Positions 1-14,496 of a DNA stretch of 64,000 nt are shown in pieces. A program made the position numbers and the translations under genes. Position 1 is the first letter of the stretch. Each line of letters begins with the position of its first letter. Under the pieces are notes generated by a model that was not told where the DNA came from, searched no databases, and saw nothing but the letters and a program-made list of their open reading frames with translations. The stretch spans positions 124,001-188,000 of the forward strand of contig NZ_ATVA01000015.1 in the NCBI RefSeq assembly GCF_000420485.1. The letters run 5' to 3'. The DNA is from Paucidesulfovibrio longus DSM 6739 (GTDB lineage Bacteria; Desulfobacterota; Desulfovibrionia; Desulfovibrionales; Desulfovibrionaceae).

Positions 1-572
1 CACTGGGCCTGCGGCCCGGCATGGCCGTCCTCGACGCGGGCTGCGGCACGGGAGCCACGGTGCGCCGCCTGCGCCGACGCTTCGGCGCGCTCGCCCTTGG
101 AATCGACCTCTCCCCCGATCCGCCGGAACCCCCTGCTCATGGTTCGCCGCTCCTGAAAGGCAGCATCGACGCCCTTCCCTTTGGCGATGGTCGGTTCGAC
201 GCCGTGTTCTGCGAATGCGTGCTCTCGCTCCAGCACGATCCGGCCCGCGTGCTTGCGGAATTCCATCGAACGCTCGCGCCAGGCGGAGGTCTGGCCCTTT
301 CCGACCTGTATCTTCCCGGCCCGGACTCTGCCTGCCCGACGCGGACGAACGCTCCCGTGTCCTGCTCCGGGGGGGCGCTGCCGGGAACGAACCTGCTCTC
401 CCTGGTCCGCGCGGCAGGATTTCGAGTGGAACGTTTCGAGGACCACAGCGTCCTGCTGCGCGACCTGGCCGCGAAGCTGGCCTGGACAGGCTGCGCGCCC
501 AACTGCGAACACACCAGAAGCACCGGATATTTTCTGCTGTTGGCCCGAAAACCGGAGGAGAAAAATGCTTGA
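1..572 (+). CDS. SAM-dependent methyltransferase (5' end outside the window)
   Basis: This is the C-terminal part of a class I SAM-dependent methyltransferase. The reading frame is open to the left edge; codons from position 3 read LGLRPGMAVLDAGCGTG, so the ATG at 21 lies inside the SAM-binding motif I and the true start is upstream. A motif-II-like FDAVFCECVLS and an LAPGG turn follow, typical of Rossmann methyltransferases. The C-terminus carries a Cys pair (GCAPNC). The substrate is unknown. The stop overlaps the next start by 8 bp, so it is cotranscribed with the C_GCAxxG_C_C and radical SAM genes. From memory, NCBI calls the equivalent D. vulgaris protein the DVU_1556 (TrsM) family. I infer it acts in the same maturation pathway. 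Confidence 0.85.
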   Translation, partial: LGLRPGMAVLDAGCGTGATVRRLRRRFGALALGIDLSPDPPEPPAHGSPLLKGSIDALPFGDGRFDAVFCECVLSLQHDPARVLAEFHRTLAPGGGLALSDLYLPGPDSACPTRTNAPVSCSGGALPGTNLLSLVRAAGFRVERFEDHSVLLRDLAAKLAWTGCAPNCEHTRSTGYFLLLARKPEEKNA

Positions 573-1029
573 CGATCTCGAACTGAATCTGCTGCGCCTG
601 TCCGGCGCGGGGTATTGTTGCAGCCAGATCATGCTGCTGCTCGGCCTGGAGGAAATGGGCCGCTCCAATCCCGATCTTGTCCGCGCCGCCGCCGGGCTCT
701 GCCACGGCATGGGCGATTGCGCCGGTCCCTGCGGCGTGCTCACGGGCGGAGCCTGCCTGCTCGGCCTGCACGCGGGCAAGGGCCGGGACGACGAGGAAGC
801 GGACGAAAGGCTCGCCCTGCTGCTTTCGGAACTGACGGACTGGTTCCGGGATACCGCCACCTCGGAATTCGGCGGCACGGCCTGCTCCCAGATCATCGGC
901 ACGGAATGCGGAAAGCCCGATCCGCAGCGCTGCGGCGGGTTGCTGGCCCGCACCTACGCGCGCATCCGCGAGATTCTGGCGGAAAACGGCCTGGACCCGA
1001 CCCAGGGACGGGACTTGCCGGATGACTGA
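565..1029 (+). CDS. C_GCAxxG_C_C family redox-type protein (154 aa)
   Basis: A small soluble Cys-rich protein of the C_GCAxxG_C_C family. The Cys residues lie in the family spacing: GYCCSQ near the N-terminus, GLCHGMGDCAGPCG in the middle, then TACSQIIG, TECGK and RCGGL. Such proteins are predicted to bind a metal or act in redox chemistry, but the exact function is unknown. I chose the ATG at 565 because GGAGGAG sits just upstream and the start overlaps the previous stop by 8 bp; longer frames to the left would lie inside the methyltransferase. Its stop overlaps the radical SAM start by 8 bp, implying translational coupling. It corresponds to what I recall as the DVU_1555 family. Confidence 0.88.
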   Translation: MLDDLELNLLRLSGAGYCCSQIMLLLGLEEMGRSNPDLVRAAAGLCHGMGDCAGPCGVLTGGACLLGLHAGKGRDDEEADERLALLLSELTDWFRDTATSEFGGTACSQIIGTECGKPDPQRCGGLLARTYARIREILAENGLDPTQGRDLPDD

Positions 1030-2428
1030 GGAACTGCCCCGCAGCGTCTGCCCGGTCTGCCTGCGCCCGATCCCGGCCCGGCTTGAGCGGAACGGGAACG
1101 AGTATTTCCTCTCCAAGACCTGTCCGGAACACGGTCCCTTTCGCAGCGTGGTCTGGCGGGGCGCTCCCGCGCTCCGGCAATGGTCCAGGGAGAAGATCCC
1201 CTCGTTTCCCAAGGCCCCGGCCACGCAAGCCCTGCGCGGCTGCCCTTTGGACTGCGGGCTTTGCCCGGAACACGGCCAGCACACCTGCACCGCGGTGCTG
1301 GAAATCACCTGGCGCTGCGACCTCGGCTGCCCGGTCTGCTTCGCCTCGGCCGGAGGAGCGGAATCACTCCGTCCGGACCTGACCCCGGCGGATGTGGAGC
1401 GGCTCCTGCGGGGAATCATGCGCGCTTCCGGCCTGTGCAACATCCAGTTTTCCGGCGGGGAACCCTCCCTGCATCCGGAGCTGCCCTCTTTCATCCAAGA
1501 AGCCAAAAAGCTCGGATTCCCCTTTGTCCAGCTCAACACCAACGGCCTGCGCGCCGCCCGCGAGCCGGACTTCGCCCTGCGCCTCGCCGAAGCGGGCCTG
1601 GATTCGGTTTTCCTGCAATTCGACTCGACGCGCGAAGCCCCCTACCAAATGCTGCGGGGCCGCCCCCTGCTGGCCGAAAAACTTCTGGCCGTGGAACGCT
1701 TCACCGCCGCCGGGTTGGGGGTCGTGCTCGTGCCCACCGTGGTTCCGGGCGTGAACGACGGCGATCTCGGCGATCTGCTGCGGCTGGCCGCCCGCCTTTC
1801 GCCCGGCGTGCGCGGCATCCACTTCCAGCCCGTGAGTTATTTCGGCAGATTTCCCGCACCGCCGAGGGATGCCCAGCGCATCACCCTGCCGGAAATCATG
1901 CGCGGCCTGGAACGCCAGACCGCAGAACAGGGAACGGCAAAGGTCCGCGCCCAGGACTTTCAGCCTCCGGGATGCGAACATTCGCGCTGCTCGTTCCACG
2001 CCAATTATCTCGTGGAAGAGAGCGGCGGCCTGCGACTGCTCTCGGCCCAGAACGGCTGCGGCTGCGCGAACACGAACACTTCCGACTCAGGCCCGGCCCC
2101 CGTTCTCGCCCGCATCGGCGCGGATCAGGCCAAGGCTTTCGTGGGCCGCCAATGGGCCGCGCCCACGCCCCGGCCGATCACAACCGAGCCGGGATCCACC
2201 CCGGACGACCTGGACCGTTTCCTGGCCCGCGCCGCAACGCACATTCTCGCAGTGTCGGGCATGGCTTTCCAGGACGCCTGGACCCTGGACCTGGAACGGC
2301 TCCGGGGCTGCTGCATCCACGTGGCCGCTCCGGACGGACGGCTGGTTCCCTTCTGCGCCTACAATCTCACCGCAACCGACGGCACGCCGCTCTACCGGAA
2401 GACCAAAGATGAACACGCCCTGGCTTGA
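1022..2428 (+). CDS. Radical SAM protein, TrsS-like (468 aa)
   Basis: A radical SAM enzyme. The catalytic 4Fe-4S ligands are in RCDLGCPVCFA (CxxxCxxC, about residues 98-106), followed by a FSGGEP SAM-contacting motif. An N-terminal module has CPVCLRPIPA and a TCPEHGPF segment, then GCPLDCGLCPEHGQHTC. This Cys pattern recalls the MJ0619/tetraether-lipid-synthase type of radical SAM protein. More Cys pairs (GCEHSRC, NGCGC) lie in the C-terminal half and could hold auxiliary clusters. From memory, the D. vulgaris relative is the 'radical SAM (seleno)protein TrsS'; no in-frame UGA is present here, so this copy is the all-Cys form. The reaction is unknown. The ATG overlaps the upstream gene, and the end overlaps the CoA ligase start by 20 bp. 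Confidence 0.87.
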   Translation: MTEELPRSVCPVCLRPIPARLERNGNEYFLSKTCPEHGPFRSVVWRGAPALRQWSREKIPSFPKAPATQALRGCPLDCGLCPEHGQHTCTAVLEITWRCDLGCPVCFASAGGAESLRPDLTPADVERLLRGIMRASGLCNIQFSGGEPSLHPELPSFIQEAKKLGFPFVQLNTNGLRAAREPDFALRLAEAGLDSVFLQFDSTREAPYQMLRGRPLLAEKLLAVERFTAAGLGVVLVPTVVPGVNDGDLGDLLRLAARLSPGVRGIHFQPVSYFGRFPAPPRDAQRITLPEIMRGLERQTAEQGTAKVRAQDFQPPGCEHSRCSFHANYLVEESGGLRLLSAQNGCGCANTNTSDSGPAPVLARIGADQAKAFVGRQWAAPTPRPITTEPGSTPDDLDRFLARAATHILAVSGMAFQDAWTLDLERLRGCCIHVAAPDGRLVPFCAYNLTATDGTPLYRKTKDEHALA

Positions 2429-3794
2429 CCTCTGGCTCCAGGCCAGCCTTTGCCCGGACGAAACGCTCTCCGCCGAGGCGTTGCTGGAGCGGCAGATGGC
2501 CCTCGTTCGCAGCACGCTCGCACATGCCGCCGCAAACAGCCCGTATTACCGCGGGCGGCTACGCGACGTTTCCATCGGTGCGATCCGGACGCCGCTGGAC
2601 ATGGCCCGACTGCCCCGAACCGGGCCGGACGACCTGCGCGCGCAGCCGGACGCCTTCCTGGCCGCCTCGCAAGATGAGGTAGCCCGCGTAATCAGCGTGC
2701 CCACCTCCGGCACCAGCGGTCCGGGCAAGCGCGTGTTCTACACCCCCGGCGATCTCGAACGCATCATCCGCTTCTTCGGGTTCGGCATGCGCAACATGCT
2801 GCAACCGGACGAAACCGCGCTGGTGCTCCTGCCCGGCGAGCGGCCGGGCAGCGTCGGCGTCCTGCTGGGCAAGGCCCTGGACACCTTCGGCGCAAGGGCG
2901 GTTGTTCTCTCTCCGGATCAAGCCTTTGGCGGGCCGCTGGGCGAGCCCGACCGGGCAATGCAGACGCTTTTGGGAAAAGACGTCCGCTGCATCGTGGGCG
3001 CGCCGGCGCACCTCAATGCGCTTGCCGCGCACTGGACCGCCATGGGAAGAAAACCCGGCATCCTCCGCTCCGCTCTGCTCTGCTGGGACGCGGTCCCGGA
3101 CAGCGTGGTCCAAAATGTCCAGCGCGCCTTCGGCTGCCGGACCTTTCAGCACTGGGGCATGGTGGAAACGGGTCTGGGAGGGGCCGTGAACTGCGACCAG
3201 GGCCAGGGACTCCACCTCCGCGAAGCGGACATCTTCGTGGAAATCGCGGATCCGGACAGCGGCGCTCCCCTCGCAGACGGCGAATGGGGCGAGATCACCG
3301 TCACGACGCTCAGCCGACGGGCCATGCCCCTGATCCGCTACCGCACCGGGGACCGCGGCTGCATCCTGCCGGGCCGCTGCCAATGCGGCAGCCCCCTGCG
3401 CCGCCTGGACCCGCGCATCCGCCGCCTGCATGACAAGCTGCCGCTGCCGGGAGGAACCAGCATGAACGCCGCCCTCCTCGGAGAGCGCCTCTACGCCGTG
3501 CCCGGACTCGCGGACTTTCAGGCTCGGCTCGAATGCGATACGGAAAACAGGGCGGATGACGCCCCGGACCGCTTGGTGATCGAAATCAGCGGCCCGGCAT
3601 ACGGCGGTGCGGCCCCGGCCATGATCCAGGCCGCCGAAGACGCCCTCGCCGCCCTGCCCGCTTTGGCCGCGGCAACGAAGCATGGCCTGCGCATCGAAAT
3701 ACGCGCGACAGGTCGAAGCGGTCCCTTGTCCACAGGGTTGGAAAAGCGCGCCCTGCGCGGCGCGGCAAACCATCATCCCAGGGAAACGACATGA
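2409..3794 (+). CDS. AMP-dependent CoA ligase, phenylacetate-CoA-ligase-like (461 aa)
   Basis: An adenylate-forming enzyme of the PaaK-like branch, expected to activate a carboxylic acid with ATP and transfer it to CoA. The phosphate-binding loop PTSGTSGPGK is near residues 98-107. The A8-type hinge IRYRTGDRG lies near residue 315, followed by a short Cys motif (GRCQCG) and a C-terminal AMP-binding lid. The substrate cannot be told from sequence. I chose the ATG at 2409 because it begins a PaaK-like N-terminus and overlaps the radical SAM gene by only 20 bp; the frame extends much further upstream without homology. The end overlaps xdhC by 4 bp. Its presence in a radical SAM/XdhC operon is unusual and suggests an acyl-CoA or adenylated intermediate in the pathway (inference). 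I recall the DVU_1553 family name for it. Confidence 0.87.
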   Translation: MNTPWLDLWLQASLCPDETLSAEALLERQMALVRSTLAHAAANSPYYRGRLRDVSIGAIRTPLDMARLPRTGPDDLRAQPDAFLAASQDEVARVISVPTSGTSGPGKRVFYTPGDLERIIRFFGFGMRNMLQPDETALVLLPGERPGSVGVLLGKALDTFGARAVVLSPDQAFGGPLGEPDRAMQTLLGKDVRCIVGAPAHLNALAAHWTAMGRKPGILRSALLCWDAVPDSVVQNVQRAFGCRTFQHWGMVETGLGGAVNCDQGQGLHLREADIFVEIADPDSGAPLADGEWGEITVTTLSRRAMPLIRYRTGDRGCILPGRCQCGSPLRRLDPRIRRLHDKLPLPGGTSMNAALLGERLYAVPGLADFQARLECDTENRADDAPDRLVIEISGPAYGGAAPAMIQAAEDALAALPALAAATKHGLRIEIRATGRSGPLSTGLEKRALRGAANHHPRETT

Positions 3795-4921
3795 ATAGAT
3801 TTCTGCGCAGCGTGCACGATCTGCTGGACCAGGGCGAGGACTTGGTGCTCGCCACCATCGTGGCTTCCTCCGGCTCCACGCCGCGCTCCTCCGGCGCGAA
3901 AATGGCCGTGCGCCGGCCCGGCCTGGCCGGAGAGCGCATCATCGGCACCGTGGGCGGCGGAGTAACCGAGGCCTGGGCCATCCGCGACGCGGAAACGCTT
4001 TTCGGAACCGAGCCGGGCTCCGCGCTGCTGCGCGAGCTGAACCTCAACCGCGACCTGGCCGCAGGCACGGACATGATCTGCGGCGGTCGGTTCACGCTTC
4101 TGCTCGAATACGTCACGCCGCGCAGTCCGGGCGCCGCAGCCCTGATCCGAATGGACGAGGCGCTCCGCAAGGGCATTCCGGGCCTGCTGCTCTTTCGCCT
4201 GGAAATGGACGATTCGGACATGGCGGTGGGGCATACGCTGCTGCCGCTGTCCGGCAACACGATCCCCGGCAAGACAGCGGCGGATGCGGATTCCGCCCTG
4301 GGCGCGACCCTGGCCGAGCTGAACCAATTGCGAAGCGCGGCCCTGGCCCGGAACGTCGCCGGAATCTACGACATCGACGGGAAACGCTTCATCGCCGAAC
4401 CCGTGCTGCCGCCCGCCCCGGTATTCCTCTACGGCGCGGGGCACGTTTCCCGCTGCACCGCGCAGGTCGCGGCCTTGACGGGATTCCGCACCGTGGTTCT
4501 CGACGACCGCTCGGATTTCGCCAATGCGGAACGCTTTCCCGACGCGGACGGCATCGTGGTCCTGGACTCCTTCGAAAACGCGGGCATGGACGGTGGCTCC
4601 GCCGGCAACCGGGAACCCGTCGGGCCGGACGCCTTTGTGGTCATCCTCACGCGCGGCCACGCGCACGACAAGACCGTGCTGGCCCAGGCACTGCGCACTC
4701 CCGCGAAATACATCGGCATGATCGGCAGCCGCAAGAAGCGCGACGACGTGTATGCGGCGCTGCGCAAGGAAGGCTTTTCGGAAACGGACATCGCCCGTTG
4801 CCGCTGTCCTATCGGCATTTCCATCGGCGCGCAGACTCCGGAAGAAATCGCCCTGAGCATCGCGGCCGAACTGGTGGCCTGCCGCGCCGGAAAATCCGAC
4901 CCGCGCCCGACATCGGCATGA
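3791..4921 (+). CDS. XdhC/CoxI-family molybdenum-hydroxylase maturation protein (376 aa)
   Basis: XdhC proteins bind molybdenum cofactor and promote its sulfuration and insertion into xanthine-dehydrogenase-type enzymes. The N-terminal XdhC_CoxI domain shows the conserved ATIVASSGSTPRSSGAKM stretch (about residues 19-36). The C-terminal Rossmann domain starts with VFLYGAGHVSRC near residue 212, and GMIGSRKKR near residue 309 is typical of the family. It starts with an ATGA overlap with the CoA ligase and ends with a 4-bp overlap with the nucleotidyltransferase. No molybdenum hydroxylase gene is in the window, so the client enzyme must be elsewhere (inference). Length is normal for two-domain XdhC proteins. 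Confidence 0.92.
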   Translation: MNRFLRSVHDLLDQGEDLVLATIVASSGSTPRSSGAKMAVRRPGLAGERIIGTVGGGVTEAWAIRDAETLFGTEPGSALLRELNLNRDLAAGTDMICGGRFTLLLEYVTPRSPGAAALIRMDEALRKGIPGLLLFRLEMDDSDMAVGHTLLPLSGNTIPGKTAADADSALGATLAELNQLRSAALARNVAGIYDIDGKRFIAEPVLPPAPVFLYGAGHVSRCTAQVAALTGFRTVVLDDRSDFANAERFPDADGIVVLDSFENAGMDGGSAGNREPVGPDAFVVILTRGHAHDKTVLAQALRTPAKYIGMIGSRKKRDDVYAALRKEGFSETDIARCRCPIGISIGAQTPEEIALSIAAELVACRAGKSDPRPTSA

Positions 4922-6045
4922 CCAACGTCGTCGCCATCATTCTCGCCGCGGGGTACTCCTCGCGCATGGACGGGTTCAAGCCGCTCCTGCCCCTGGCGGG
5001 CGAGCCTGCGCTGAGCCGGGTGGTGCGGACCTTCCAGGAGGCGGGAGTCCAGGAGATCAGTGTCGTCGCCGGGCACAGGCAACAGGAGATCGCCTCGCTC
5101 TGCGCGGAGCTGAATGTCCGGGTGACCATGAACCCCGATTTCGCGGACGGCATGTTCAGCTCGGTGCGCGCCGGAGTACGCGAGCTGCCGCCGGAGGCGG
5201 ACGGCTTCTTCCTTCTGCCCGTGGACATCTCCCTGATACGCCCGGCCACGCTTCGCCGCCTGATCCTGGACTTCGCCGAAAACCGGGCCTTGGTCACGCA
5301 TCCCGTCTTTGCCGGGGAACCGGGCCACCCCCCGCTTCTGGCGCGCGAGCTGCGCCAGCCGATTCTGCGGCACTCCGGCGAGGGAGGATTGCGGGCCGTT
5401 TTGGCAGACTATGAGCAAGAAGCTCGATGGTTGAACGTGGCGGACCAGGGCGTGCTCCTGGACATGGACCTGCCCTGCGACTATGCGGCGCTCCAGAAAC
5501 GCGCCGTGATCGGCTTTCCTCTCGACGCCGAATGCGAAGCCCTTTTCGAAATCTGCGGCACGCCAATTCCCGCGCGGGAGCATAGCCGCGTGGTGGCCCA
5601 GGTGGCGGAGCGAATGACCGAGGCTCTGAACCACGTCCGGCCCGCAGGGGAACGCCTCGACCTGGCCCTGGTCCGCAGCGCTGGGCTGACGCACGACCTG
5701 GCCAAGGGACGCCCCCGGCACGCCCAGGAAGGAGCCGGGCTCCTGCGCGAGCACGGATTCGATGCCGTCGCGGACATTGTTGTCGATCATCCGGACCTGC
5801 ATCTTGCGGATGCGGCCCCGATCACCGAGCGTGAAATCGTTTTCCTGGCCGACAAATTCGTGCAGGGAACGCGCATCGTGCCGATCGTGGATCGATATCT
5901 CGCCAAGCTGGAACGCTATCGCGACGAGCCCCAGGCAGCGGCGGCCGTTCGTGAAAGATTAATACGCGCGGAAGGCATTTTGCTGCGTTTCTGCGCCGAG
6001 GCCCATGTCCGCCTTCCCGATCTTCTGCTGGAAACGCCGGAATGA
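4918..6045 (+). CDS. MobA-like NTP transferase fused to an HD phosphohydrolase domain (375 aa)
   Basis: The first half (about residues 1-190) is a MobA/MocA-type nucleotidyltransferase. IILAAGYSSRMDGFKPLLPL is the nucleotide-binding loop, with the catalytic-type Arg and Lys, and LLPVDISL is the acidic metal-binding motif. Such domains attach CMP or GMP to molybdopterin. The second half carries an HD-domain signature: EHSRVVAQ (H near 222), LTHDLAKG (HD near 258) and VVDHPDL. The two activities in one chain suggest nucleotide transfer plus phosphohydrolase or nucleotidase action on the same cofactor (inference). I chose the ATG at 4918 because it begins TNVVAIILAAG and overlaps xdhC by 4 bp. 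I recall it as the DVU_1551 NTP transferase family. Confidence 0.88.
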   Translation: MTNVVAIILAAGYSSRMDGFKPLLPLAGEPALSRVVRTFQEAGVQEISVVAGHRQQEIASLCAELNVRVTMNPDFADGMFSSVRAGVRELPPEADGFFLLPVDISLIRPATLRRLILDFAENRALVTHPVFAGEPGHPPLLARELRQPILRHSGEGGLRAVLADYEQEARWLNVADQGVLLDMDLPCDYAALQKRAVIGFPLDAECEALFEICGTPIPAREHSRVVAQVAERMTEALNHVRPAGERLDLALVRSAGLTHDLAKGRPRHAQEGAGLLREHGFDAVADIVVDHPDLHLADAAPITEREIVFLADKFVQGTRIVPIVDRYLAKLERYRDEPQAAAAVRERLIRAEGILLRFCAEAHVRLPDLLLETPE

Positions 6046-6731
6046 TCGCCCTCATCCGCCACGCCGCCGCCGAAGGAGCCGAGGGACGCTACATCGGCGA
6101 CACGGACCTGCCGCTCTCCGCCACGGGCCGCGCCCAGGCGCGGGACATGGCCGAAGCATTTTGCGCTGCATGCAATAGCGCGCCCCCATCCTGCGGACGC
6201 CCGGACAGCCTTCCTGCCCGCACCCTTGCCGCCCTCTATGTCTCCCCGCTGACCCGCGCGAGGCATACCGCCGCCCCTCTGGCCGAAGCATTGGGCATCG
6301 TTCCGGAAATTCTCGACGACCTGCGCGAGATACACCTCGGCCAGTGGGAAGGGCTCGACAGGGACCATGTGCGCGCCACCCGCTCCGAAGAATTCGCGGC
6401 GCGGGGCCGCGACTTCGCCGGGTTCCGCCCGCCCGGCGGCGAATCGTTCGCCGATCTCGCCCTGCGTGCCGGAAAGGCGCTGCGCCGCATGGCCTGCGGG
6501 CCGCTGCCCTGCGCCGCAGTGACCCACGCGGGCATTATCCGCGTCCTGCTTTGCCGCGCGCAGGGACTCCCCCTGAACGAAATATTCCATTTCCATCCAC
6601 GCCACACGGGCTGGACCCTGCTTGAATTCGCGTCCCCGTGTCGGTCCGGTTCCCTTGATCCGCACCTGGCGGCCCAAAACCTTTCGGCAGCCGATGCAGC
6701 CACGCTGCTGCGCGGATCATCCCGTCCCTGA
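6042..6731 (+). CDS. Histidine phosphatase family protein (229 aa)
   Basis: A phosphoglycerate-mutase-like (branch 1 histidine phosphatase) enzyme. The catalytic His lies in LIRHAAAEG at residues 4-12, where the usual RHG is RHA. TDLPLSATGRAQA follows, and the second catalytic His is in AVTHAGIIRV, with EIHLGQWEG in between. The substrate is unknown. CobC and phosphoglycerate mutase are relatives, and the operon suggests a nucleotide or cofactor phosphate ester. It overlaps the upstream gene by 4 bp and is the last gene of the cluster. No clear terminator follows it. Confidence 0.85.
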   Translation: MIALIRHAAAEGAEGRYIGDTDLPLSATGRAQARDMAEAFCAACNSAPPSCGRPDSLPARTLAALYVSPLTRARHTAAPLAEALGIVPEILDDLREIHLGQWEGLDRDHVRATRSEEFAARGRDFAGFRPPGGESFADLALRAGKALRRMACGPLPCAAVTHAGIIRVLLCRAQGLPLNEIFHFHPRHTGWTLLEFASPCRSGSLDPHLAAQNLSAADAATLLRGSSRP

Positions 6732-8319: not shown

Positions 8320-9423
8320 TCAGGTACGGCATTCCAGCGTATTCCAACGCGCGGATTTCAACGCCGCCCCGGACTGCCCGAGAATCAGGCATTCCCTGCC
8401 GGGAAGGCTGTCGGCCAAGGCAAGCCCTGCGTGGGGCGACGAAGCGAAGAGCGCGGTGGCCAGACAGTCCGCCCCCATGACCGTTGGCGCGGCCACGGAC
8501 ACGGACAGGACCTGCCCCGGGCAGATGCCGGAATCGGGGCGCACGATGTGGTGCCGCCCCGGTCCCCAGGTCTGTTCATAGGCTCCGGAGGTGGCCACGG
8601 CCATGTCGCGCAGCTCGATGACGGAAGGCGTGGTCTCGTGTCCGCGCGGGTCTTCCAGGGCGATGCGCCAGCCCCGCTCCGGGGTCGGCCTTCCCGAAGC
8701 GCGGATGTCGCCGCCCGCATTGATGAGATGATCCCGCACGCCCAGCCTGGCCATGACTTCCGAAGCCCGGTCCACGACATAGCCCTTGCCGATGCCGTCC
8801 AGGGTCAGGGCCATGCCCGTGCGCCCCAGCGTCAGGTTCCGGCCCGCGACGCGCACGTGCACCGCGCCCACCAGGTCCAGGGCCTCGCGCATTGCGGCGG
8901 CGTCCGGCTCGTGCGGGCCTGCCGCGCGCAGCAGGTCCACCAGCGGGGCCACGCTGGGATCGAAAACGCCGTCCGTCAGGCGATGCACAGCCAGGGCCCG
9001 CTCCACCACGGCGACCAGTTCCGGTTCCGCCCCGTTCAGGCTGCCGAAGCGATTCAGGTGCGACAGCGGGGTTCCGGAATCATGGCGGTTGAGAATGGCG
9101 GAGAGGCGCAGTATTTCGGCGTACGCGGCCTCAATGGCGGTTTCGGCCTTGTCCCGGCTTGCGTCCACCGCGGTGATGTTCACGAAGGTGCCGAGAAGAA
9201 AGCGGCACGCTTCCAGCCGGTGCGGCCGGACTTTTCCGACGAACTCCACGGCAGCGGCCCGCGCCCCCAGCAGGGGATCCAGAAGGGGCGTCAGGGTCAG
9301 CCCGGCGCCGAGCATGGTGCCGTAGCGCAGAAAACTGCGCCGGGTCAGGCGGCGGTTTCCGTCCCGGCGGCGAGCCACGCCCGCGCCGCAATCATAGCTG
9401 TAGGTCTTCATGTCCGTCCTCAT
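8320..9423 (-). CDS. apbE: FAD:protein FMN transferase ApbE (367 aa)
   Basis: ApbE attaches FMN from FAD covalently to a Thr of target proteins such as RnfG and RnfD, outside the membrane. The N-terminus has a twin-arginine signal (LTRRSFLRYG near residues 27-36) and a hydrophobic stretch, so export by Tat is likely. Family motifs include FLLGTFVNITA, HLNRFGSLNG, LTLDGIGKGYVVDRA and INAGGDIRASG. Length is normal. It is the last gene of the rnf operon, 6 bp after rnfB, a common position. Start 9423 is assigned; ATG 9411 is an alternative that keeps the Tat motif. Confidence 0.93.
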   Translation of the reverse strand: MRTDMKTYSYDCGAGVARRRDGNRRLTRRSFLRYGTMLGAGLTLTPLLDPLLGARAAAVEFVGKVRPHRLEACRFLLGTFVNITAVDASRDKAETAIEAAYAEILRLSAILNRHDSGTPLSHLNRFGSLNGAEPELVAVVERALAVHRLTDGVFDPSVAPLVDLLRAAGPHEPDAAAMREALDLVGAVHVRVAGRNLTLGRTGMALTLDGIGKGYVVDRASEVMARLGVRDHLINAGGDIRASGRPTPERGWRIALEDPRGHETTPSVIELRDMAVATSGAYEQTWGPGRHHIVRPDSGICPGQVLSVSVAAPTVMGADCLATALFASSPHAGLALADSLPGRECLILGQSGAALKSARWNTLECRT

Positions 9424-9429
9424 GCAGCC

Positions 9430-11544
9430 TTAGTTTTCGACTGCCTGTTCATAAGGAGTCACGTCCCTGTCCTCGGCGAATTCCGAGCCCGCTTCCGCGT
9501 CGTAGCAGGTAAAGCCGCAACGCAGGCAACGGCTGGCCTCCTTGACGGCCTCGCGGTCGCCGATGCCTCTGCGCACTTCCAGGGCGAAACGCTCCAGCCG
9601 GGCCTTAACGGGCACCTCCGAGGGCTGCACCTTGGGGATGCGCCAGCGCACGCGCATGCCCTTGAGCAGGGATTCGGGCACGACCCGTTCCTGCGGCAGG
9701 GTGGGCATGGGCACGTCGCCCGTGGTCACGAAGTTGTGGATCGACCGCGCGGCGCGACGTCCGTCGGCCACGGCTTCCATGACGATGGAGCGCCCCCGGC
9801 GCAGCTCGCCGCCCACGAAGACGTGCGGCAGGTTGGTGCGCATGGTCATGTCGTCGCCGATGATGGTGCCCTGCTTGGTCAAGCGGAACGGTCCGAGGCC
9901 GCGCTTGTCCAGATAGGGGCTGAGATCGGGCACGCGGTCCGTGGCGACCACGAAGAGATCCGCCTCCAGCCGCGCCTCGGTGCCGGGCACGGGACGCGGC
10001 TCGCCCGCGGCCTTCTTCTCGTCGGGATACTCCGTGCGCACATAGCGCACGGCAACGGCGCGGCCTGATTCATCCAGCTCGAAACTCTGGGGCATGGTTT
10101 GGACGAGGATTTCGGCTCCGATTTCCTCGGCCTTCTCGATTTCGTACTTGTTCGCGGCCATTTTGCGCGGAATGTGCCGCGTGAGCACGCTGGTCCGCTC
10201 CGCGCCGAGACGAACCAGGCTCCGGGCGATATCCATGGCCGAGTTGGTGCCGCCGACGACCACGGCGCGCCTGCCCTTGAGGTTGGTCCAGCGCGAGCCG
10301 ACGCCCGTGAGGAAATCAACCCCACCCACGATGTTTCTGGCGTCGTCTCCCGGAATATAGAGACGGGGATTGCGCCAGGCGCCCGTGGCCAGGAACACGG
10401 CCTCATAGCCCTGGCTTTCCAGATCGCCGAGGTCGAAATCCTTGCCGAAGGTCATATAGGTGCGCACTTCCACGCCCAGTTCCAGGATGCCCTGGATTTC
10501 CCAGTCCACCACGTTGCGCGGCAGCCGGAACTCGGGGATGGCGTAGCGAAGCATGCCGCCGAGCGCCGAATGGGACTCGAAGATCACGGGATGGTGCCCC
10601 AGGCGGCGCAAGAAATAGGCGCAGGAAAGCCCGGCCGGGCCGCCGCCCACGATGGCCACCTTGCGGCCCGTTTCCGGAGCCACGTGAATGGGGATGCGCC
10701 CCGTGTTCATCTCCCAGTCGGCAACGTAGCGCTCCAGCGCGTTGATGCCCACGCCCTCGTCCACGATCTTGCGGCGGCAGATGTCCTCGCAGGGATGCGG
10801 ACAGATGCGGCCCACGATCAGGGGCAGCGGGTTGCGGTTCTTGAGGGTCAGCAGTGCGCCGTGCAGATCGCCGGTCTTGACCTGCTGGACGAAGGTGCGC
10901 ACGTCGAGCTGCACCGGGCACTTCTGCATGCAGGGCGCAAGGCAGTCCACGAGCTTGTTCACGTGCAGCAGGCTTGCGGAAAAGCTGGTGATGCGGATCG
11001 CGCCCGTGGGACAGACCTCGGCGCACTTGCCGCAGGAGCGGCACAGGGCCTTGTTGACCACGGGCAGATTGTCCCGGCCGAGGCGAACGGCATCGAAGGG
11101 ACAGGCGCGCACGCAGGAGCCCATGCCGATGCAGCCGAGTCCGCAGCTTTTCTCCCCGCCGTAAAGCATGGCCTCCGCCCGGCAGTCGCGCACGCCCTCA
11201 TAGGCGAACATGCGCTTGGCCCGGTCGCCGCCGGAGCAGATCAAAGCGGCCACCTGCGGCTCGCGGTAATCGACGCTCAGGCCCATGACCCTGGCGATGG
11301 CCGCGGCCGTGTCCATGCCGCCGGCCACGCAGATCTCCGGGGGAGCCTCGCCCGCCACGACCGCGGCCGCGGCCGCGGAGCAGCCTGGCAGCCCGCAGCC
11401 GCCGCAGTTGGCTCCGGGAAGGCAGGCCTCCACCTCGGCCACGCGCGGATCCTCCTCCACGTGAAAGACGCGGGAAGCCGCGGCCAGCAGCACGGCGGCC
11501 ACGAAACTCAAGCCGAAAACAATGGCGACAGAGGAAGCGATCAT
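9430..11544 (-). CDS. rnfB: RnfB fused to a GltD/NfnB-like flavoprotein (704 aa)
   Basis: The first 190 residues are RnfB. A membrane anchor (residues 4-24) is followed by the 4Fe-4S motif C41..C47xxC50xxxxC55 and C72. Two ferredoxin-type clusters come next (CIGMGSCVRACP and CRSCGKCAEVCP, about residues 138-180). From about residue 195 a second protein follows: a GltD/NfnB/DPYD-type Fe-S domain (CLAPCMQKCP, CPHPCEDIC), an FAD Rossmann fold (VAIVGGGPAGLSCAYF near 297-312) and an NAD(P) Rossmann fold (VVVGGTNSAMDIA near 430). RnfB is normally about 200-330 residues, so this is a true fusion without frameshift. It suggests that NAD(P)H or a flavin can exchange electrons with RnfB directly (inference). 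It sits 47 bp after rnfA. Confidence 0.92.
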   Translation of the reverse strand: MIASSVAIVFGLSFVAAVLLAAASRVFHVEEDPRVAEVEACLPGANCGGCGLPGCSAAAAAVVAGEAPPEICVAGGMDTAAAIARVMGLSVDYREPQVAALICSGGDRAKRMFAYEGVRDCRAEAMLYGGEKSCGLGCIGMGSCVRACPFDAVRLGRDNLPVVNKALCRSCGKCAEVCPTGAIRITSFSASLLHVNKLVDCLAPCMQKCPVQLDVRTFVQQVKTGDLHGALLTLKNRNPLPLIVGRICPHPCEDICRRKIVDEGVGINALERYVADWEMNTGRIPIHVAPETGRKVAIVGGGPAGLSCAYFLRRLGHHPVIFESHSALGGMLRYAIPEFRLPRNVVDWEIQGILELGVEVRTYMTFGKDFDLGDLESQGYEAVFLATGAWRNPRLYIPGDDARNIVGGVDFLTGVGSRWTNLKGRRAVVVGGTNSAMDIARSLVRLGAERTSVLTRHIPRKMAANKYEIEKAEEIGAEILVQTMPQSFELDESGRAVAVRYVRTEYPDEKKAAGEPRPVPGTEARLEADLFVVATDRVPDLSPYLDKRGLGPFRLTKQGTIIGDDMTMRTNLPHVFVGGELRRGRSIVMEAVADGRRAARSIHNFVTTGDVPMPTLPQERVVPESLLKGMRVRWRIPKVQPSEVPVKARLERFALEVRRGIGDREAVKEASRCLRCGFTCYDAEAGSEFAEDRDVTPYEQAVEN

Positions 11545-11591
11545 ATCTTCTCCGTTGAACTCATTTCCACTTCAGGCGCATGCGCCGGACT

Positions 11592-12167
11592 TCAGCCGCC
11601 CATGCCCCGGAAGGCATAAAACGCCAGGGACATCACTCCGGCCGTGACCAGGGCGATGGGCGTGCCGCGAAAGACCCGGGGGATGGGGGCCGTGTCGAAC
11701 CGCTCGCGAATGGCCGCCATGAGCACCAGTGCCAACAGGAAGCCCGCTCCGGAGGCCAGGGAATAGACCACGCCCCGGACAAAGGGCAGATCGTTGCGCT
11801 GCACCAGGATGGCCACGCCGAGCACGGCGCAGTTGGTGGTGATCAGCGGCAGATAGATGCCCAGGGAGGCATAGAGCGGCGGCACGAACTTGCGCAGGAA
11901 CATCTCCACCAGCTGCACCAGCGAGGCGATGACCAGAATGAAGACGATGGTCTGGAGATAGTCCACGCCGTTCGGCAGGAGCAGCAGGTGCTGGATGGGC
12001 CAGGTCAGGGCCGTGGCCATGGTCATGACGAAGACCACGGCTCCGCCCATGCCGAGAGCCACCCCGATGGCCTTGGACGTGCCCATGAACGGGCAGGATC
12101 CCAGGTATTGCACCAGCACGATGTTGCTGATGAACACGGCGGTGATGATGAGCAGGAAGTAATCCAT
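11592..12167 (-). CDS. rnfA: Rnf complex membrane subunit RnfA (191 aa)
   Basis: An integral membrane subunit of the Rnf ion-translocating ferredoxin:NAD oxidoreductase, with six predicted hydrophobic segments. The family N-terminus is clear (YFLLIITAVFISNIVLVQYL, then GSCPFMG), and the half-channel motif PLITTNCAVLGVA carries the conserved Cys that coordinates the intramembrane Fe-S cluster shared with RnfE. Length is normal. It follows rnfE by 24 bp with AAGGAGAA before the ATG. Confidence 0.95.
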   Translation of the reverse strand: MDYFLLIITAVFISNIVLVQYLGSCPFMGTSKAIGVALGMGGAVVFVMTMATALTWPIQHLLLLPNGVDYLQTIVFILVIASLVQLVEMFLRKFVPPLYASLGIYLPLITTNCAVLGVAILVQRNDLPFVRGVVYSLASGAGFLLALVLMAAIRERFDTAPIPRVFRGTPIALVTAGVMSLAFYAFRGMGG

Positions 12168-12191
12168 GTGCGGTTCTCCTTGCGTGGCGGG

Positions 12192-12920
12192 CTAATCAGC
12201 GCTGCCGTTGGTGCCGTTGGCCGGACTTTCTGCGTCTTCCTCCACGATGGCCAGATGCGCCGCGCCCGGCGAAGAGCACGAGGCGATGGCTTCCACGGCG
12301 CGCGGCGGCGGACCTTCGTGACGGCGGCTGTACCAGCCGCTGAAGGCGTTCATGCCCGCCAGGATCAAGCCCAGGCAGAGGAACGCGCCCGGCGCCTGGA
12401 CCATGATGCTGAACGGCGCGAACGTATCCCAGGCCACCTGCGCGCCGAACACCGTGCCGTTGCCGAACAGCTCGCGGATGCACCCCAGAACGGTCAGGGA
12501 CATGGTGAACCCAAGGCCCATGCCGAGCGCGTCGGCCACGGAGGCGAGCACGGGATTCTTGGACGCGAAGGCCTCGGCCCGTCCAAGGATGATGCAGTTG
12601 ACCACGATGAGCGGCACGAAGATTCCGAGCTTCTGGTAGAGCGGATAGGCATAGGCCTGCATCAGCAGCTCCACCGTGACCACCAGGGAGGCCGCGATGA
12701 GGATGAAGCAGGCGATGCGCACCTTGGACGGGATCAGGTTGCGCAGGAGCGAAACGAGCAGGTTCGAGAGCGTGAGCACGAAGACCACGGCCAGCCCCAT
12801 GCCCAGCCCGTTCTCCGCGGAAGAGGTCACGGCCAGGGTGGGGCACAGGCCCAGGACCACGCGGAACGGGGGCAGCTCCTTCCAGAGCCCCTTGACGAAT
12901 TCCTTCCAGATGCGGTGCAT
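12192..12920 (-). CDS. rnfE: Rnf complex membrane subunit RnfE (242 aa)
   Basis: Membrane subunit related to RnfA with inverted topology. The N-terminal VLGLCPTLAVTSSAENGLGMG and the central PLIVVNCIILGRAEAFA are family signatures, with Cys in each half-channel. About six membrane spans. The C-terminal tail beyond residue 200 (roughly 40 residues, ending in an acidic EEDAESPANGTNG segment) is somewhat longer than in short RnfE proteins. It lies 9 bp downstream of rnfG. Confidence 0.94.
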   Translation of the reverse strand: MHRIWKEFVKGLWKELPPFRVVLGLCPTLAVTSSAENGLGMGLAVVFVLTLSNLLVSLLRNLIPSKVRIACFILIAASLVVTVELLMQAYAYPLYQKLGIFVPLIVVNCIILGRAEAFASKNPVLASVADALGMGLGFTMSLTVLGCIRELFGNGTVFGAQVAWDTFAPFSIMVQAPGAFLCLGLILAGMNAFSGWYSRRHEGPPPRAVEAIASCSSPGAAHLAIVEEDAESPANGTNGSAD

Positions 12921-12929
12921 GGCTTCTCC

Positions 12930-13511
12930 TCAGCCGTTCCAGGCGGCGCGGGCCTTTTCCTTCAGCCCGGGATAGAGTTCGGCGGCCTTCCCGACCGCAT
13001 TCACCGTGCCCGCCGAGGAGAAGGTCGCCCCGGAAACGGCGTCGATGTCGCCGTTGTCCTTCTTCAACCCCAGGCCCGTGAGCGGGTGGTCCTCGAACTG
13101 CTCGTAAAATCCTGGCACAAAGACCCTCGTGCCCACTCCCGGCGTTTCGGACTGGGTGGTCACGCCCACGGCCGACACCGTGTCCGCGTCCAGGTCGAAG
13201 GCGACCATCACGCCGATGTTGCCCGAATAACCGGGGGCAAAGGTCTCGAACGCGAGGCTCGTCAACCTCCCGCCACGAAAACCGGGGAACACGGTGATCT
13301 CGCCGCCGTCCTCAAGGGACAGCTTGCGGCGGTCCTTGATGGGATCGTTCTCCACGCCCGCCAGCACGCCCAGGAGCGCCGGTCCCTGCACGTAGGTCAG
13401 CACCTGTTCCTCGATGTCCGCGCGGGTGGCCTGCTTGAGCGCGGCCAGGCCGTAGCCGGAGATCGTGCCTATGAGCGAGAGCACCAGCACCATCTTGATC
13501 AGTTCACGCAT
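12930..13511 (-). CDS. rnfG: Rnf complex FMN-binding subunit RnfG (193 aa)
   Basis: RnfG carries a covalent FMN on Thr in the periplasmic domain. The attachment motif is present as DAVSGATFSSAGTVNAV near residues 155-171. One N-terminal membrane anchor (MVLVLSLIGTISGYGLAAL). The start at 13511 was chosen because GAGGAGGAAG lies just upstream and the start overlaps rnfD by 8 bp; the longer frame starts inside rnfD without a ribosome site. ApbE at the end of the operon is expected to flavinylate it. Confidence 0.93.
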   Translation of the reverse strand: MRELIKMVLVLSLIGTISGYGLAALKQATRADIEEQVLTYVQGPALLGVLAGVENDPIKDRRKLSLEDGGEITVFPGFRGGRLTSLAFETFAPGYSGNIGVMVAFDLDADTVSAVGVTTQSETPGVGTRVFVPGFYEQFEDHPLTGLGLKKDNGDIDAVSGATFSSAGTVNAVGKAAELYPGLKEKARAAWNG

Positions 13512-14496
13512 GGATCTTCCTCCTCGCGCCAAAGGGCCGGGGCCGGATGCGGTCAAGAAGAGGGGTCAGCAGGTTGGCCAGCAACACCGCCAGGGGAGCG
13601 CCGTCCAGGAACACGCCGTAGGTCCGGATGAGCACGGTCAGCGTCCCGGCCACGAGGCCGAACAGGATCATGGGCAGCCGTCCGCAGGGCGACGATCCTG
13701 GATCCGTGGCCAGGAAGAAGGCGGCGAGCATCACCGATCCCGTGACCAGATGAAACTGCGGCGCGGCGAAGCGCGGCGGATCGATCTGCCAGAGCACCCC
13801 GGAGGTCAGCGCCACGCCGAGCAGGAAGGCCAACGGGATGAACGGCTTGACCACGCCGCGCACCAGGAGCCAAAGCCCGCCCAGCAGCAGCGCAGCCACC
13901 TGCGACGCGCCCACGGCGCCGATCTGTCCGCCGAGGAAAAGCTCCAGCAGGTCGAACTGCTCCAGGCCGGATACGCCGAAATATTTCAGCGTAGCCAAGG
14001 GCTCGTTCATGGGCAGCGCGGCCAGGGCCAGGTCCACGTCCATGAACTGCGGCCAGGAGGCCTTGCAGACGGCCCAGCCCAGGGCAGGCGCGCAAAACGG
14101 ATTGGACCCCTGGCCGCCGAAAAGCGTCTGCCCCAGGGCCACGGAGACGAATCCGCCCACAAAGGCGAGCCACCAGGGCGCACCGCTCGGCAGAAGCAGG
14201 GCGAAGAGCAGCCCGGTGTAAAAGGCGTTCCAGTTGTCCAGCTGCATGGGCTGCCTGCGCAGCCGGGACATGAGCGCCTCGCAGGCCACGGCCGCGGCGC
14301 AGGCCATGCCCACGACCTCCGCCGCGCCCAGACCGAAGCGCCAGGATGCCAGCAGAACGGCGGGCGCCAGGGCCAGAACGCGCTCCAGGTTCATGCCCCG
14401 GATGGTCCGCCCGCAGCGCCAGTGGGAAGGCGGGCCCACGGTGAGCCGGATGGCGATGTCCGCATGGGGCTTGATGATGGCGGCTTGTTTGATCAT
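13504..14496 (-). CDS. rnfD: Rnf complex membrane subunit RnfD lacking the flavinylated Thr (330 aa)
   Basis: Integral membrane subunit related to NqrB. Recognised by TVGPPSHWR near the N-terminus, FALLLPSGAPWWLA, the LFGGQGSNPFCAPALG loop, and VTGSVMLAAFFLATDP. Most RnfD/NqrB proteins bear covalent FMN on Thr in an (S/T)GATPL-type motif. Here the equivalent segment reads LPMNEPLATLKYFG, placing Glu165 where Thr is expected (codon 14002-14004). RnfG in the same operon keeps its own motif. Otherwise the protein is full length, so the change looks like a property of this lineage, not decay (inference). Confidence 0.93.
   Translation of the reverse strand: MIKQAAIIKPHADIAIRLTVGPPSHWRCGRTIRGMNLERVLALAPAVLLASWRFGLGAAEVVGMACAAAVACEALMSRLRRQPMQLDNWNAFYTGLLFALLLPSGAPWWLAFVGGFVSVALGQTLFGGQGSNPFCAPALGWAVCKASWPQFMDVDLALAALPMNEPLATLKYFGVSGLEQFDLLELFLGGQIGAVGASQVAALLLGGLWLLVRGVVKPFIPLAFLLGVALTSGVLWQIDPPRFAAPQFHLVTGSVMLAAFFLATDPGSSPCGRLPMILFGLVAGTLTVLIRTYGVFLDGAPLAVLLANLLTPLLDRIRPRPFGARRKIHA

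What the first reader, a model, noticed from the sequence alone, without database searches (positions are those of the whole stretch)
1..6731. Poorly understood seven-gene maturation cluster with fully overlapping genes
Seven genes in a row overlap by 4-20 bp: methyltransferase, C_GCAxxG_C_C protein, radical SAM protein, CoA ligase, XdhC, NTP transferase-HD and histidine phosphatase. XdhC and the MobA-like enzyme point to molybdenum-hydroxylase cofactor work. A radical SAM enzyme, a CoA ligase and a methyltransferase are not part of any standard Moco pathway that I know. I recall that NCBI families DVU_1551 to DVU_1557 (TrsS, TrsM) describe this set and hint at selenium, but no reaction is established to my knowledge. 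It is the best candidate here for an undescribed pathway.
Basis: partly seen in the sequence, partly recalled or inferred. Interest (0 to 1): 0.65.

Follow-up and report, generated by a model that had tools for sequence, protein, structure and literature searches.

The report
Assembly genes of an aldehyde-oxidoreductase operon
The seven overlapping genes are the second half of a widely conserved operon that builds and serves a molybdenum aldehyde-oxidising enzyme studied for some 40 years, and they probably make an unknown protein-bound cofactor for that enzyme's electron partner, which nobody has yet identified biochemically.

Summary
In detail: seven genes overlap by 4-20 bp and six match NCBI's DVU_1551-1556 set. 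The window edge hides the rest of the operon: ModABC, a MoeA-like protein, the D. gigas-type molybdenum aldehyde oxidoreductase (MOP), a flavin/dicluster/HdrB-like protein (DICL) and a 71-aa zinc-ribbon protein (ZnR). The operon recurs in at least four phyla. In 148 Desulfobacterota genomes the radical SAM TrsS and the ligase occur in exactly the same 15, and all 10 MOP genomes carry TrsS. In 245 Clostridia, TrsS and MOP occupy the same 9 genomes. So the client is MOP. The genes split in two. XdhC, NTP-transferase-HD and phosphatase follow the molybdenum enzyme. TrsM, TrsS and ligase also occur, as a sister clade, without MOP, but with DICL parts and ZnR. Extra MOP copies can bring their own DICL and ZnR but not TrsM/TrsS. 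ZnR ends in lysine in 97 of 99 sequences; no other operon protein has a fixed last residue. I propose that the ligase loads an acid onto ZnR and TrsS/TrsM elaborate it into a redox arm, somewhat as in lipoate assembly. Trans-acting assembly is well supported; the carrier-lysine chemistry is inference. A selenium role is not supported here.

The parts
1..572 (+). TrsM, DVU_1556-family SAM methyltransferase; the gene starts 120 bases left of the window (L004 11880). Upstream and outside: ZnR at window -335..-120, DICL at -2620..-332, MOP at -5425..-2702, MoeA-like ending at -5499, ModABC at -8982..-6901
   Evidence: NF045667 215.9 bits, cut-off 155; coordinates
565..1029 (+). DVU_1555-family C_GCAxxG_C_C redox protein
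   Evidence: NF045669 189.7 bits, cut-off 103; PF09719 88 bits
1022..2428 (+). TrsS, radical SAM enzyme related to tetraether lipid synthase (GDGT-MAS/Tes), with all its metal-site motifs
   Evidence: NF045646 621.5 bits, cut-off 490; next best Tes 313.7 bits; 7tol 275 bits; ligand columns; AF2 model matches 7tom, TM 0.77
2409..3794 (+). DVU_1553-family AMP-forming (PaaK-like) ligase
   Evidence: NF045666 415.7 bits, cut-off 300; adenylation motifs invariant in 89 relatives
3791..4921 (+). XdhC-family aldehyde oxidoreductase maturation factor
   Evidence: NF045664 415.6 bits, cut-off 350
4918..6045 (+). DVU_1551-family NTP transferase (MocA-like) fused to an HD domain
   Evidence: NF045665 442.3 bits, cut-off 315; PF12804 and PF01966
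6042..6731 (+). Histidine phosphatase, alpha-ribazole-phosphatase-like, last gene of the operon
   Evidence: PF00300 150 bits; TIGR03162 116 bits, below its cut-off

Best explanation
The seven genes are the assembly half of a MOP-type aldehyde oxidoreductase operon, in two branches. Molybdenum branch: NTP transferase-HD makes the cytosine-dinucleotide form of the molybdenum cofactor and XdhC delivers it to MOP; the phosphatase probably serves here too. Trs branch: the AMP-forming ligase activates a carboxylic acid, and TrsM and TrsS methylate it and forge a new C-S or C-C bond, making a prosthetic group for the electron-transfer partner (DICL with its small protein ZnR) rather than for the molybdenum site. 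The most specific version is that the acid is loaded on the fixed C-terminal lysine of ZnR, as in lipoate assembly, and that ZnR docks on the C-terminal domain of DICL and carries electrons or acyl groups between MOP and the HdrB-like CCG sites. Shown: gene content, co-occurrence, module split, conserved metal sites, conserved lysine. Inferred: every reaction, the substrate, and the direction of electron flow.
For: Operon order MOP-DICL-ZnR-TrsM-CGC-TrsS-ligase-XdhC-NTP-HisP across phyla: of 56 loci with enough upstream sequence, MOP in 52, DICL 53, TrsM 55, CGC 55; of 59 with enough downstream sequence, ligase in 57. TrsS and ligase in the same 15 of 148 genomes; MOP in 10 of those and nowhere else. 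Clostridia: same 9 of 245. MOP-less TrsS are one sister clade (99/93) that keeps ligase, usually TrsM, ZnR and the DICL C-terminal domain, and in some loci the CCG part. Extra MOP copies in G249 come with DICL and ZnR only; C. ljungdahlii has a tandem duplicate with two MOP, DICL, ZnR and XdhC but one TrsM, TrsS and ligase. ZnR ends in Lys in 97 of 99; the commonest last residue of the ten other proteins reaches at most 47%. DICL-ZnR fusions in L134 and L144. GDGT-MAS makes a substrate-carbon to cluster-sulfur intermediate (PMC9433317) and TrsS keeps its ligands. A lipoamide-dehydrogenase-like gene sits in one MOP-less operon (L190).
Against: No substrate, product or mass shift is known. The ligase is PaaK-like, not LplA, and TrsS is not a LipA relative. 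A fixed C-terminal lysine could be a protein-protein contact. In G088 the second MOP has no DICL or ZnR within the 16 kb fetched, and L191 lacks ZnR nearby. Two MOP-less ZnR copies have two residues after the lysine. NTP-HD is missing in 2 of 10 MOP genomes and present in 4 without MOP, so that assignment is loose. Loci are the closest TrsS relatives, hence biased. Genomes are not independent, so p-values overstate the evidence.
Confidence: 0.55

Rival explanations
1. TrsM, TrsS and ligase modify the molybdenum site itself: the pterin, or the exchangeable sulfur/oxygen/selenium ligand of MOP.
For: MOP never occurs without TrsS in the 393 Desulfobacterota and Clostridia genomes; XdhC and NTP transferase lie in the same operon; MJ0619, the TrsS relative, was once proposed to methylate a pterin.
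Against: A monophyletic TrsS clade with ligase and usually TrsM exists in genomes without MOP and without NTP-HD. The structural work on D. gigas AOR reviewed in PMC10223205 describes an oxo in place of the sulfido ligand and mentions no further modification in the passages read. The pterin proposal for MJ0619 could not be corroborated (PMC9433317).
Confidence: 0.2
2. The cluster is a catabolic pathway: MOP oxidises an aldehyde to an acid, the ligase makes its CoA thioester, and TrsS/TrsM transform that substrate.
For: An aldehyde oxidoreductase beside an AMP-forming CoA-ligase-family gene; MOP-less relatives sit beside 2-hydroxyacyl-CoA dehydratase-like genes; Aor is listed under ethanol metabolism in D. 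vulgaris (PMC10920352).
Against: Extra MOP copies do not bring ligase or TrsS (in C. ljungdahlii the single ligase lies with one copy and the single TrsS with the other). D. gigas AOR accepts many aldehydes. Maturation genes fill the operon. A catabolic path does not explain ZnR's fixed terminus.
Confidence: 0.18
3. The Trs genes make a free organic or organometallic cofactor, by analogy with FeGP (Hcg) assembly, where radical SAM, methyltransferase, nucleotidyltransferase and carboxylate adenylation act in turn.
For: Same set of enzyme types in one operon.
Against: The nucleotidyltransferase is MocA-like and is absent from MOP-less TrsS genomes. The Hcg comparison is from memory and was not tested by sequence.
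Confidence: 0.1
4. The system handles selenium, for example selenating MOP, with TrsS as a selenoprotein.
For: NCBI names TrsS a (seleno)protein, and a 2026 review lists a TrsS selenoprotein (PMC13188914).
Against: No in-frame TGA inside the TrsS copies examined here; SelD in 132 of 148 genomes is uninformative, and TrsS-positive G108 lacks a hit.
Confidence: 0.04

Closest known systems
D. vulgaris DVU_1551-DVU_1559 gene set (NCBIfam NF045645, NF045646, NF045663-NF045669)
   Same: All nine NCBI families of the set match above cut-off in this genome, in the conserved order. NCBI already ties XdhC to aldehyde oxidoreductase.
   Different: Nothing in gene content. NCBI gives names but no reaction; the module split, MOP-less relatives, fixed lysine and docking domain are added here.
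D. gigas / D. desulfuricans aldehyde oxidoreductase (MOP; PDB 1sij, 1vlb, 1dgj)
   Same: 907-aa orthologue next to the cluster (1444 and 1491 bits, full length).
   Different: Structural and biochemical work used flavodoxin as a stand-in electron partner (PMC10223205); the operon supplies a dedicated flavin/Fe-S partner.
GDGT-MAS / Tes tetraether lipid synthase (PDB 7tol, 7tom)
   Same: TrsS has the rubredoxin-like site, N-terminal cluster, radical SAM cluster and C-terminal cluster ligands including the labile Met.
   Different: Separate clade, below the Tes cut-off, His267 for Asn/Thr, extra conserved Cys348 in the MOP-linked type, shorter helical region. Lipid substrate unlikely but untested.
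Lipoate assembly on carrier proteins (LplA/LipA)
   Same: Works-like comparison: AMP-forming activation of an acid, radical SAM enzyme with an auxiliary cluster, small carrier with an invariant lysine.
   Different: No sequence relation of ligase, radical SAM enzyme or carrier; extra methyltransferase; modification not shown.
DUF4258/RelE-fold toxin with YgiT/MqsA zinc antitoxin
   Same: DICL's C-terminal domain models as a RelE-superfamily fold, and ZnR resembles the YgiT/MqsA zinc domain; adjacent genes, fused twice.
   Different: No HTH domain in ZnR; the domain is part of a redox enzyme; sequence support is weak.

Membership tests
NCBI DVU_1551-1557 set with aldehyde oxidoreductase | Each gene exceeds the curated cut-off of its NCBI family | tested here: met
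   NF045645, 045646, 045663, 045664, 045665, 045666, 045667, 045668, 045669 all above cut-off
MOP-type aldehyde oxidoreductase (client) | Full-length orthologue of the solved Desulfovibrio enzymes | tested here: met
   NF045668 1691 bits; 1dgj 1491 and 1sij 1444 bits over 900+ residues
MOP-type aldehyde oxidoreductase (client) | Binds molybdopterin cytosine dinucleotide and oxidises aldehydes | not testable with these tools
   Needs purified protein
Tetraether lipid synthase (Tes/GDGT-MAS) | Ligands of the four metal sites | tested here: met
   C10 C13 C34 H37; C74 C78 C81 H84; C99 C103 C106; C430 C431 C445 with M414 kept in nearly all TrsS
Tetraether lipid synthase (Tes/GDGT-MAS) | NF045702 curated cut-off and placement inside the Tes clade | tested here: not met
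   313.7 of 450 bits; TrsS and Tes separate at 100/99
Third selenium trait / selenium-dependent molybdenum hydroxylase system | SelD in the genome | tested here: met
   G000:C18, 324 bits, but 132 of 148 genomes have it
Third selenium trait / selenium-dependent molybdenum hydroxylase system | HP1 and HP2 marker genes (EF2563/EF2564 types, PMC2432076) | not tested
   Not searched genome-wide; none of the operon proteins is named so
Lipoate assembly | LplA-type ligase and LipA-type radical SAM enzyme | tested here: not met
   Ligase is PaaK-like, TrsS is Tes-like
Lipoate assembly (works like) | Small carrier with invariant lysine and covalent modification | tested here: inconclusive
   C-terminal Lys in 97 of 99 ZnR; modification not testable here
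RelE-superfamily / DUF4258 domain (DICL C-terminus) | Fold and sequence match | tested here: inconclusive
   BrnT 3u97 Z 8.1, rmsd 2.4 over 73; most of the top 50 rows RelE-superfamily toxins; DUF4258 hit by 11 of 45 members, best E 0.0023; no Foldseek E under 0.001
MqsA-type antitoxin (ZnR) | Two CxxC zinc motifs followed by an HTH domain | tested here: not met
   Two CxxC present, protein ends after 71 aa without HTH

The most novel reading that the evidence does not exclude
ZnR, a zinc-ribbon protein that looks like an antitoxin's zinc domain, is a carrier whose C-terminal lysine receives a new prosthetic group built by ligase, TrsM and TrsS; it docks on a RelE-like domain of DICL and works as a redox arm, with a MOP aldehyde oxidoreductase in one lineage and 2-hydroxyacyl-CoA dehydratase-like enzymes in another.
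Probability: 0.25. Interest if true: 0.88.

Novelty: new variant of a known kind. Interest (0 to 1): 0.62.

Why it matters
Desulfovibrio aldehyde oxidoreductase has been studied for some 40 years, with flavodoxin used as a stand-in electron partner. The operon names a dedicated partner (DICL with ZnR) and shows that six further genes are kept to build the system. If TrsS, TrsM and ligase modify ZnR, this would be a new carrier-bound cofactor and a new use of the tetraether-synthase type of radical SAM enzyme. One mass spectrum of one small protein could decide it.

Tried and rejected
1) Selenium: looked for in-frame TGA in TrsS of about 110 loci. The internal stops in L064, L105 and L127, and the one reported for G316, lie at the C-terminus and are the ordinary stops. 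SelD profiling was saturated. 2) A single seven-gene pathway: rejected because NTP-HD is absent from all five MOP-less TrsS genomes and from two MOP genomes, and occurs in four genomes without MOP. 3) TrsS as a lipid synthase: below cut-off, separate clade. 4) The Haft and Tolstoy 2025 paper that appears to name TrsS (reference 64 of PMC13188914) and Haft and Gwadz 2023 are not held, so I cannot say how much of the neighbourhood they describe; this limits the novelty claim. 5) Literature searches for DVU_1553-1559 gave only passing mentions. 7) The ZnR profile against PDB sequences gave only generic zinc fingers. 8) The best fold match of the DICL C-terminal domain has a middling Z (8.1), so that relation is kept as a lead.
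Full report
What is there. The seven genes are on the + strand with end overlaps of 8, 8, 20, 4, 4 and 4 bp. Six exceed the cut-off of their NCBI family: TrsM NF045667, C_GCAxxG NF045669, TrsS NF045646, ligase NF045666, XdhC NF045664 and NTP transferase NF045665. The phosphatase is alpha-ribazole-phosphatase-like but below cut-off. The window is G000:C15:124001-188000. Reading 12 kb upstream shows that the cluster is the second half of a longer run: ModA, ModB, ModC, a MoeA-like protein, a 907-aa molybdenum aldehyde oxidoreductase (MOP, NF045668, 1691 bits), a 762-aa protein with Fer4_20, flavin, dicluster and CCG domains (DICL, NF045663, 966 bits), a 71-aa two-CxxC protein (ZnR, NF045645 'DVU_1557 family redox protein', 104 bits), then TrsM. 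DICL and ZnR overlap by 4 bp, and ZnR and TrsM by 1 bp. MOP is an orthologue of the D. gigas and D. desulfuricans enzymes of known structure (1sij, 1dgj).

Who it works with. A scan for TrsS relatives gave 80 loci from Desulfobacterota, Bacillota, Campylobacterota and Chloroflexota. Among loci with enough flanking sequence, MOP lies upstream in 52 of 56, DICL in 53, TrsM in 55 and C_GCAxxG in 55; downstream, ligase in 57 of 59, XdhC in 42, NTP transferase in 37 and phosphatase in 34. In 148 Desulfobacterota genomes, TrsS over cut-off occurs in 14, plus one split gene in G039; the ligase is over cut-off in exactly these 15; MOP over cut-off in 9, plus a half gene at a contig end in G104, all inside the 15; C_GCAxxG in 12 of the 15. 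In 245 Clostridia, TrsS and MOP over cut-off occur in the same 9 genomes; two of these (G148, G151) were seeds, and without them it is 7 of 7. Hypergeometric values are 8e-21 (TrsS-ligase), 3e-12 (TrsS-MOP) and 1e-13 (Clostridia without seeds), but genomes are related, so these overstate the evidence. In 181 Chloroflexota the only MOP genome was the seed, and it had TrsS.

Two branches. Five Desulfobacterota genomes (G131, G075, G108, G125, G039), Chloroflexota G523 and second copies in G270 and G402 carry TrsS without a MOP beside it; the first six genomes have no MOP over cut-off at all. In a tree of 48 sequences these TrsS form one clade (99/93), sister to the MOP-linked TrsS (99/96), with Tes outside (100/99). 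They keep the ligase and, apart from the G402 copy, TrsM, ZnR and the C-terminal domain of DICL as a separate protein of about 90-130 residues; three also have the dicluster/CCG part as a separate protein of about 370-420 residues. Some lie beside 2-hydroxyacyl-CoA-dehydratase-like genes; G075 has two of them and an activator-like ATPase. The NTP transferase is in 8 of 10 MOP genomes and in none of the 5 MOP-less TrsS genomes (Fisher p 0.007), but also in 4 genomes with neither. So XdhC and NTP transferase belong to the molybdenum side, while TrsM, TrsS and ligase form a portable core tied to ZnR and DICL parts.

Duplications agree. G249 has three MOP genes and one TrsS; its two extra MOP copies come with DICL and ZnR only. 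C. ljungdahlii has a tandem copy of the operon with two MOP, DICL, ZnR and XdhC but one TrsM, TrsS, ligase, NTP transferase and phosphatase in the region read. This is what one expects if TrsM, TrsS and ligase act in trans as assembly enzymes, and ZnR and DICL are parts of the working complex. G088's second MOP, with no DICL or ZnR nearby, is an exception.

What the enzymes look like. TrsS is closest to GDGT-MAS (7tol/7tom), the tetraether lipid synthase. That enzyme has a rubredoxin-like iron and three Fe4S4 clusters, and forms an intermediate bond between a substrate carbon and a cluster sulfur (PMC9433317). TrsS keeps the corresponding residues (C10 C13 C34 H37; C74 C78 C81 H84; C99 C103 C106; C430 C431 C445 and Met414) in nearly all copies, but has its own marks: His267 for Asn/Thr, and Cys348 and Glu319-x3-Cys323 in the MOP-linked type. 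The ligase keeps adenylation motifs (S100 G101, G104, K107; R310 Y311, G314 D315) in 89 relatives. DICL carries two repeats of the C..CC..CxxC signature (C425, C455 C456, C492, C495; C537, C572 C573, C606, C609), which I recognise from HdrB/HdrD, where it holds non-cubane clusters that reduce disulfides; that identification is from memory.

The small protein. ZnR ends in lysine in 97 of 99 sequences, LEDK in 87, across both TrsS clades, while the last residue of the ten other operon proteins is variable (commonest at most 47%). It resembles YgiT/MqsA zinc domains (13 and 9 of 27 members) and, weakly, the LysW carrier protein (5 of 27). It sits next to DICL's C-terminal domain, which models with high confidence (pLDDT 90) as a RelE-superfamily fold (best BrnT, Z 8.1) and whose best-matching Pfam family is DUF4258 (11 of 45 members, weak). 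In L134 and L144 DICL and ZnR are one protein. I read this as a docking pair resembling a toxin-antitoxin couple; toxin activity is not implied.

How it most likely works (inferred). NTP transferase-HD and XdhC finish and deliver the molybdenum cofactor to MOP. The ligase adenylates an acid and loads it on ZnR, through the lysine side chain or its C-terminal carboxylate. TrsM methylates and TrsS forms a C-S or C-C bond. The finished arm on ZnR shuttles electrons or acyl groups between MOP and the CCG sites of DICL. The lipoate analogy (AMP-forming ligase, radical SAM enzyme with auxiliary cluster, lysine on a carrier) is a works-like comparison, not membership. A lipoamide-dehydrogenase-like gene inside one MOP-less operon (L190 5417-6823) fits but is one case. 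I give about 0.9 that these genes serve the MOP system, 0.6 that the Trs branch acts on the DICL/ZnR side rather than on molybdenum, and 0.25-0.3 for the lysine carrier.

Selenium. NCBI calls TrsS a (seleno)protein and a 2026 review lists it (PMC13188914). In the loci read here there is no Sec codon inside TrsS, and SelD is too common in the phylum to inform. A selenium role for the pathway is not supported, though Sec-containing TrsS may exist elsewhere.

Novelty. The gene set is already catalogued by NCBI, and the paper likely to describe it was not available. The biochemistry appears undescribed in the papers I could search. New here, as far as I can tell: the quantified client, the module split, the MOP-less sister systems, the fixed terminal lysine of ZnR, and the DICL-ZnR docking pair. 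A review of the D. gigas enzyme says that flavodoxin was used as the putative partner in the search for the missing flavin component (PMC10223205); DICL is a better genomic candidate.

Noticed in passing
L004 11665-11880 (window -335..-120) and L004 9380-11668: C-terminal ~90 aa of DICL look like a RelE/DUF4258 fold and the adjacent ZnR like a YgiT/MqsA zinc domain; fused in L134 and L144. A possible domesticated toxin-antitoxin-type docking pair.
   Followed up: partly
L066 100-3887, L190 10933-12279, L191 541-2016: MOP-less TrsS clusters lie beside 2-hydroxyacyl-CoA dehydratase-like genes (two plus an activator-like ATPase in L066), suggesting a second client for the same core.
   Followed up: partly
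L190 6876-9471, L191 2646-5238: Two TrsS-like genes in tandem; the second lacks the N-terminal auxiliary-cluster cysteines (C74, C78, C81), so it may be a divergent partner.
   Followed up: no
L147 20410-20762: The second C_GCAxxG copy of C. ljungdahlii reads in two frames, so it may be a pseudogene or a sequence error.
   Followed up: no
window 8320-14496: On the - strand downstream lies an ApbE-like gene and what looks like an Rnf cluster, with an RnfB-like protein (9430-11544) extended by an NADPH-glutamate-synthase-like part. Read by eye, not searched.
   Followed up: no
L074 3736-5141: TrsS of G039 is split into two overlapping reading frames; frameshift or assembly error.
   Followed up: no
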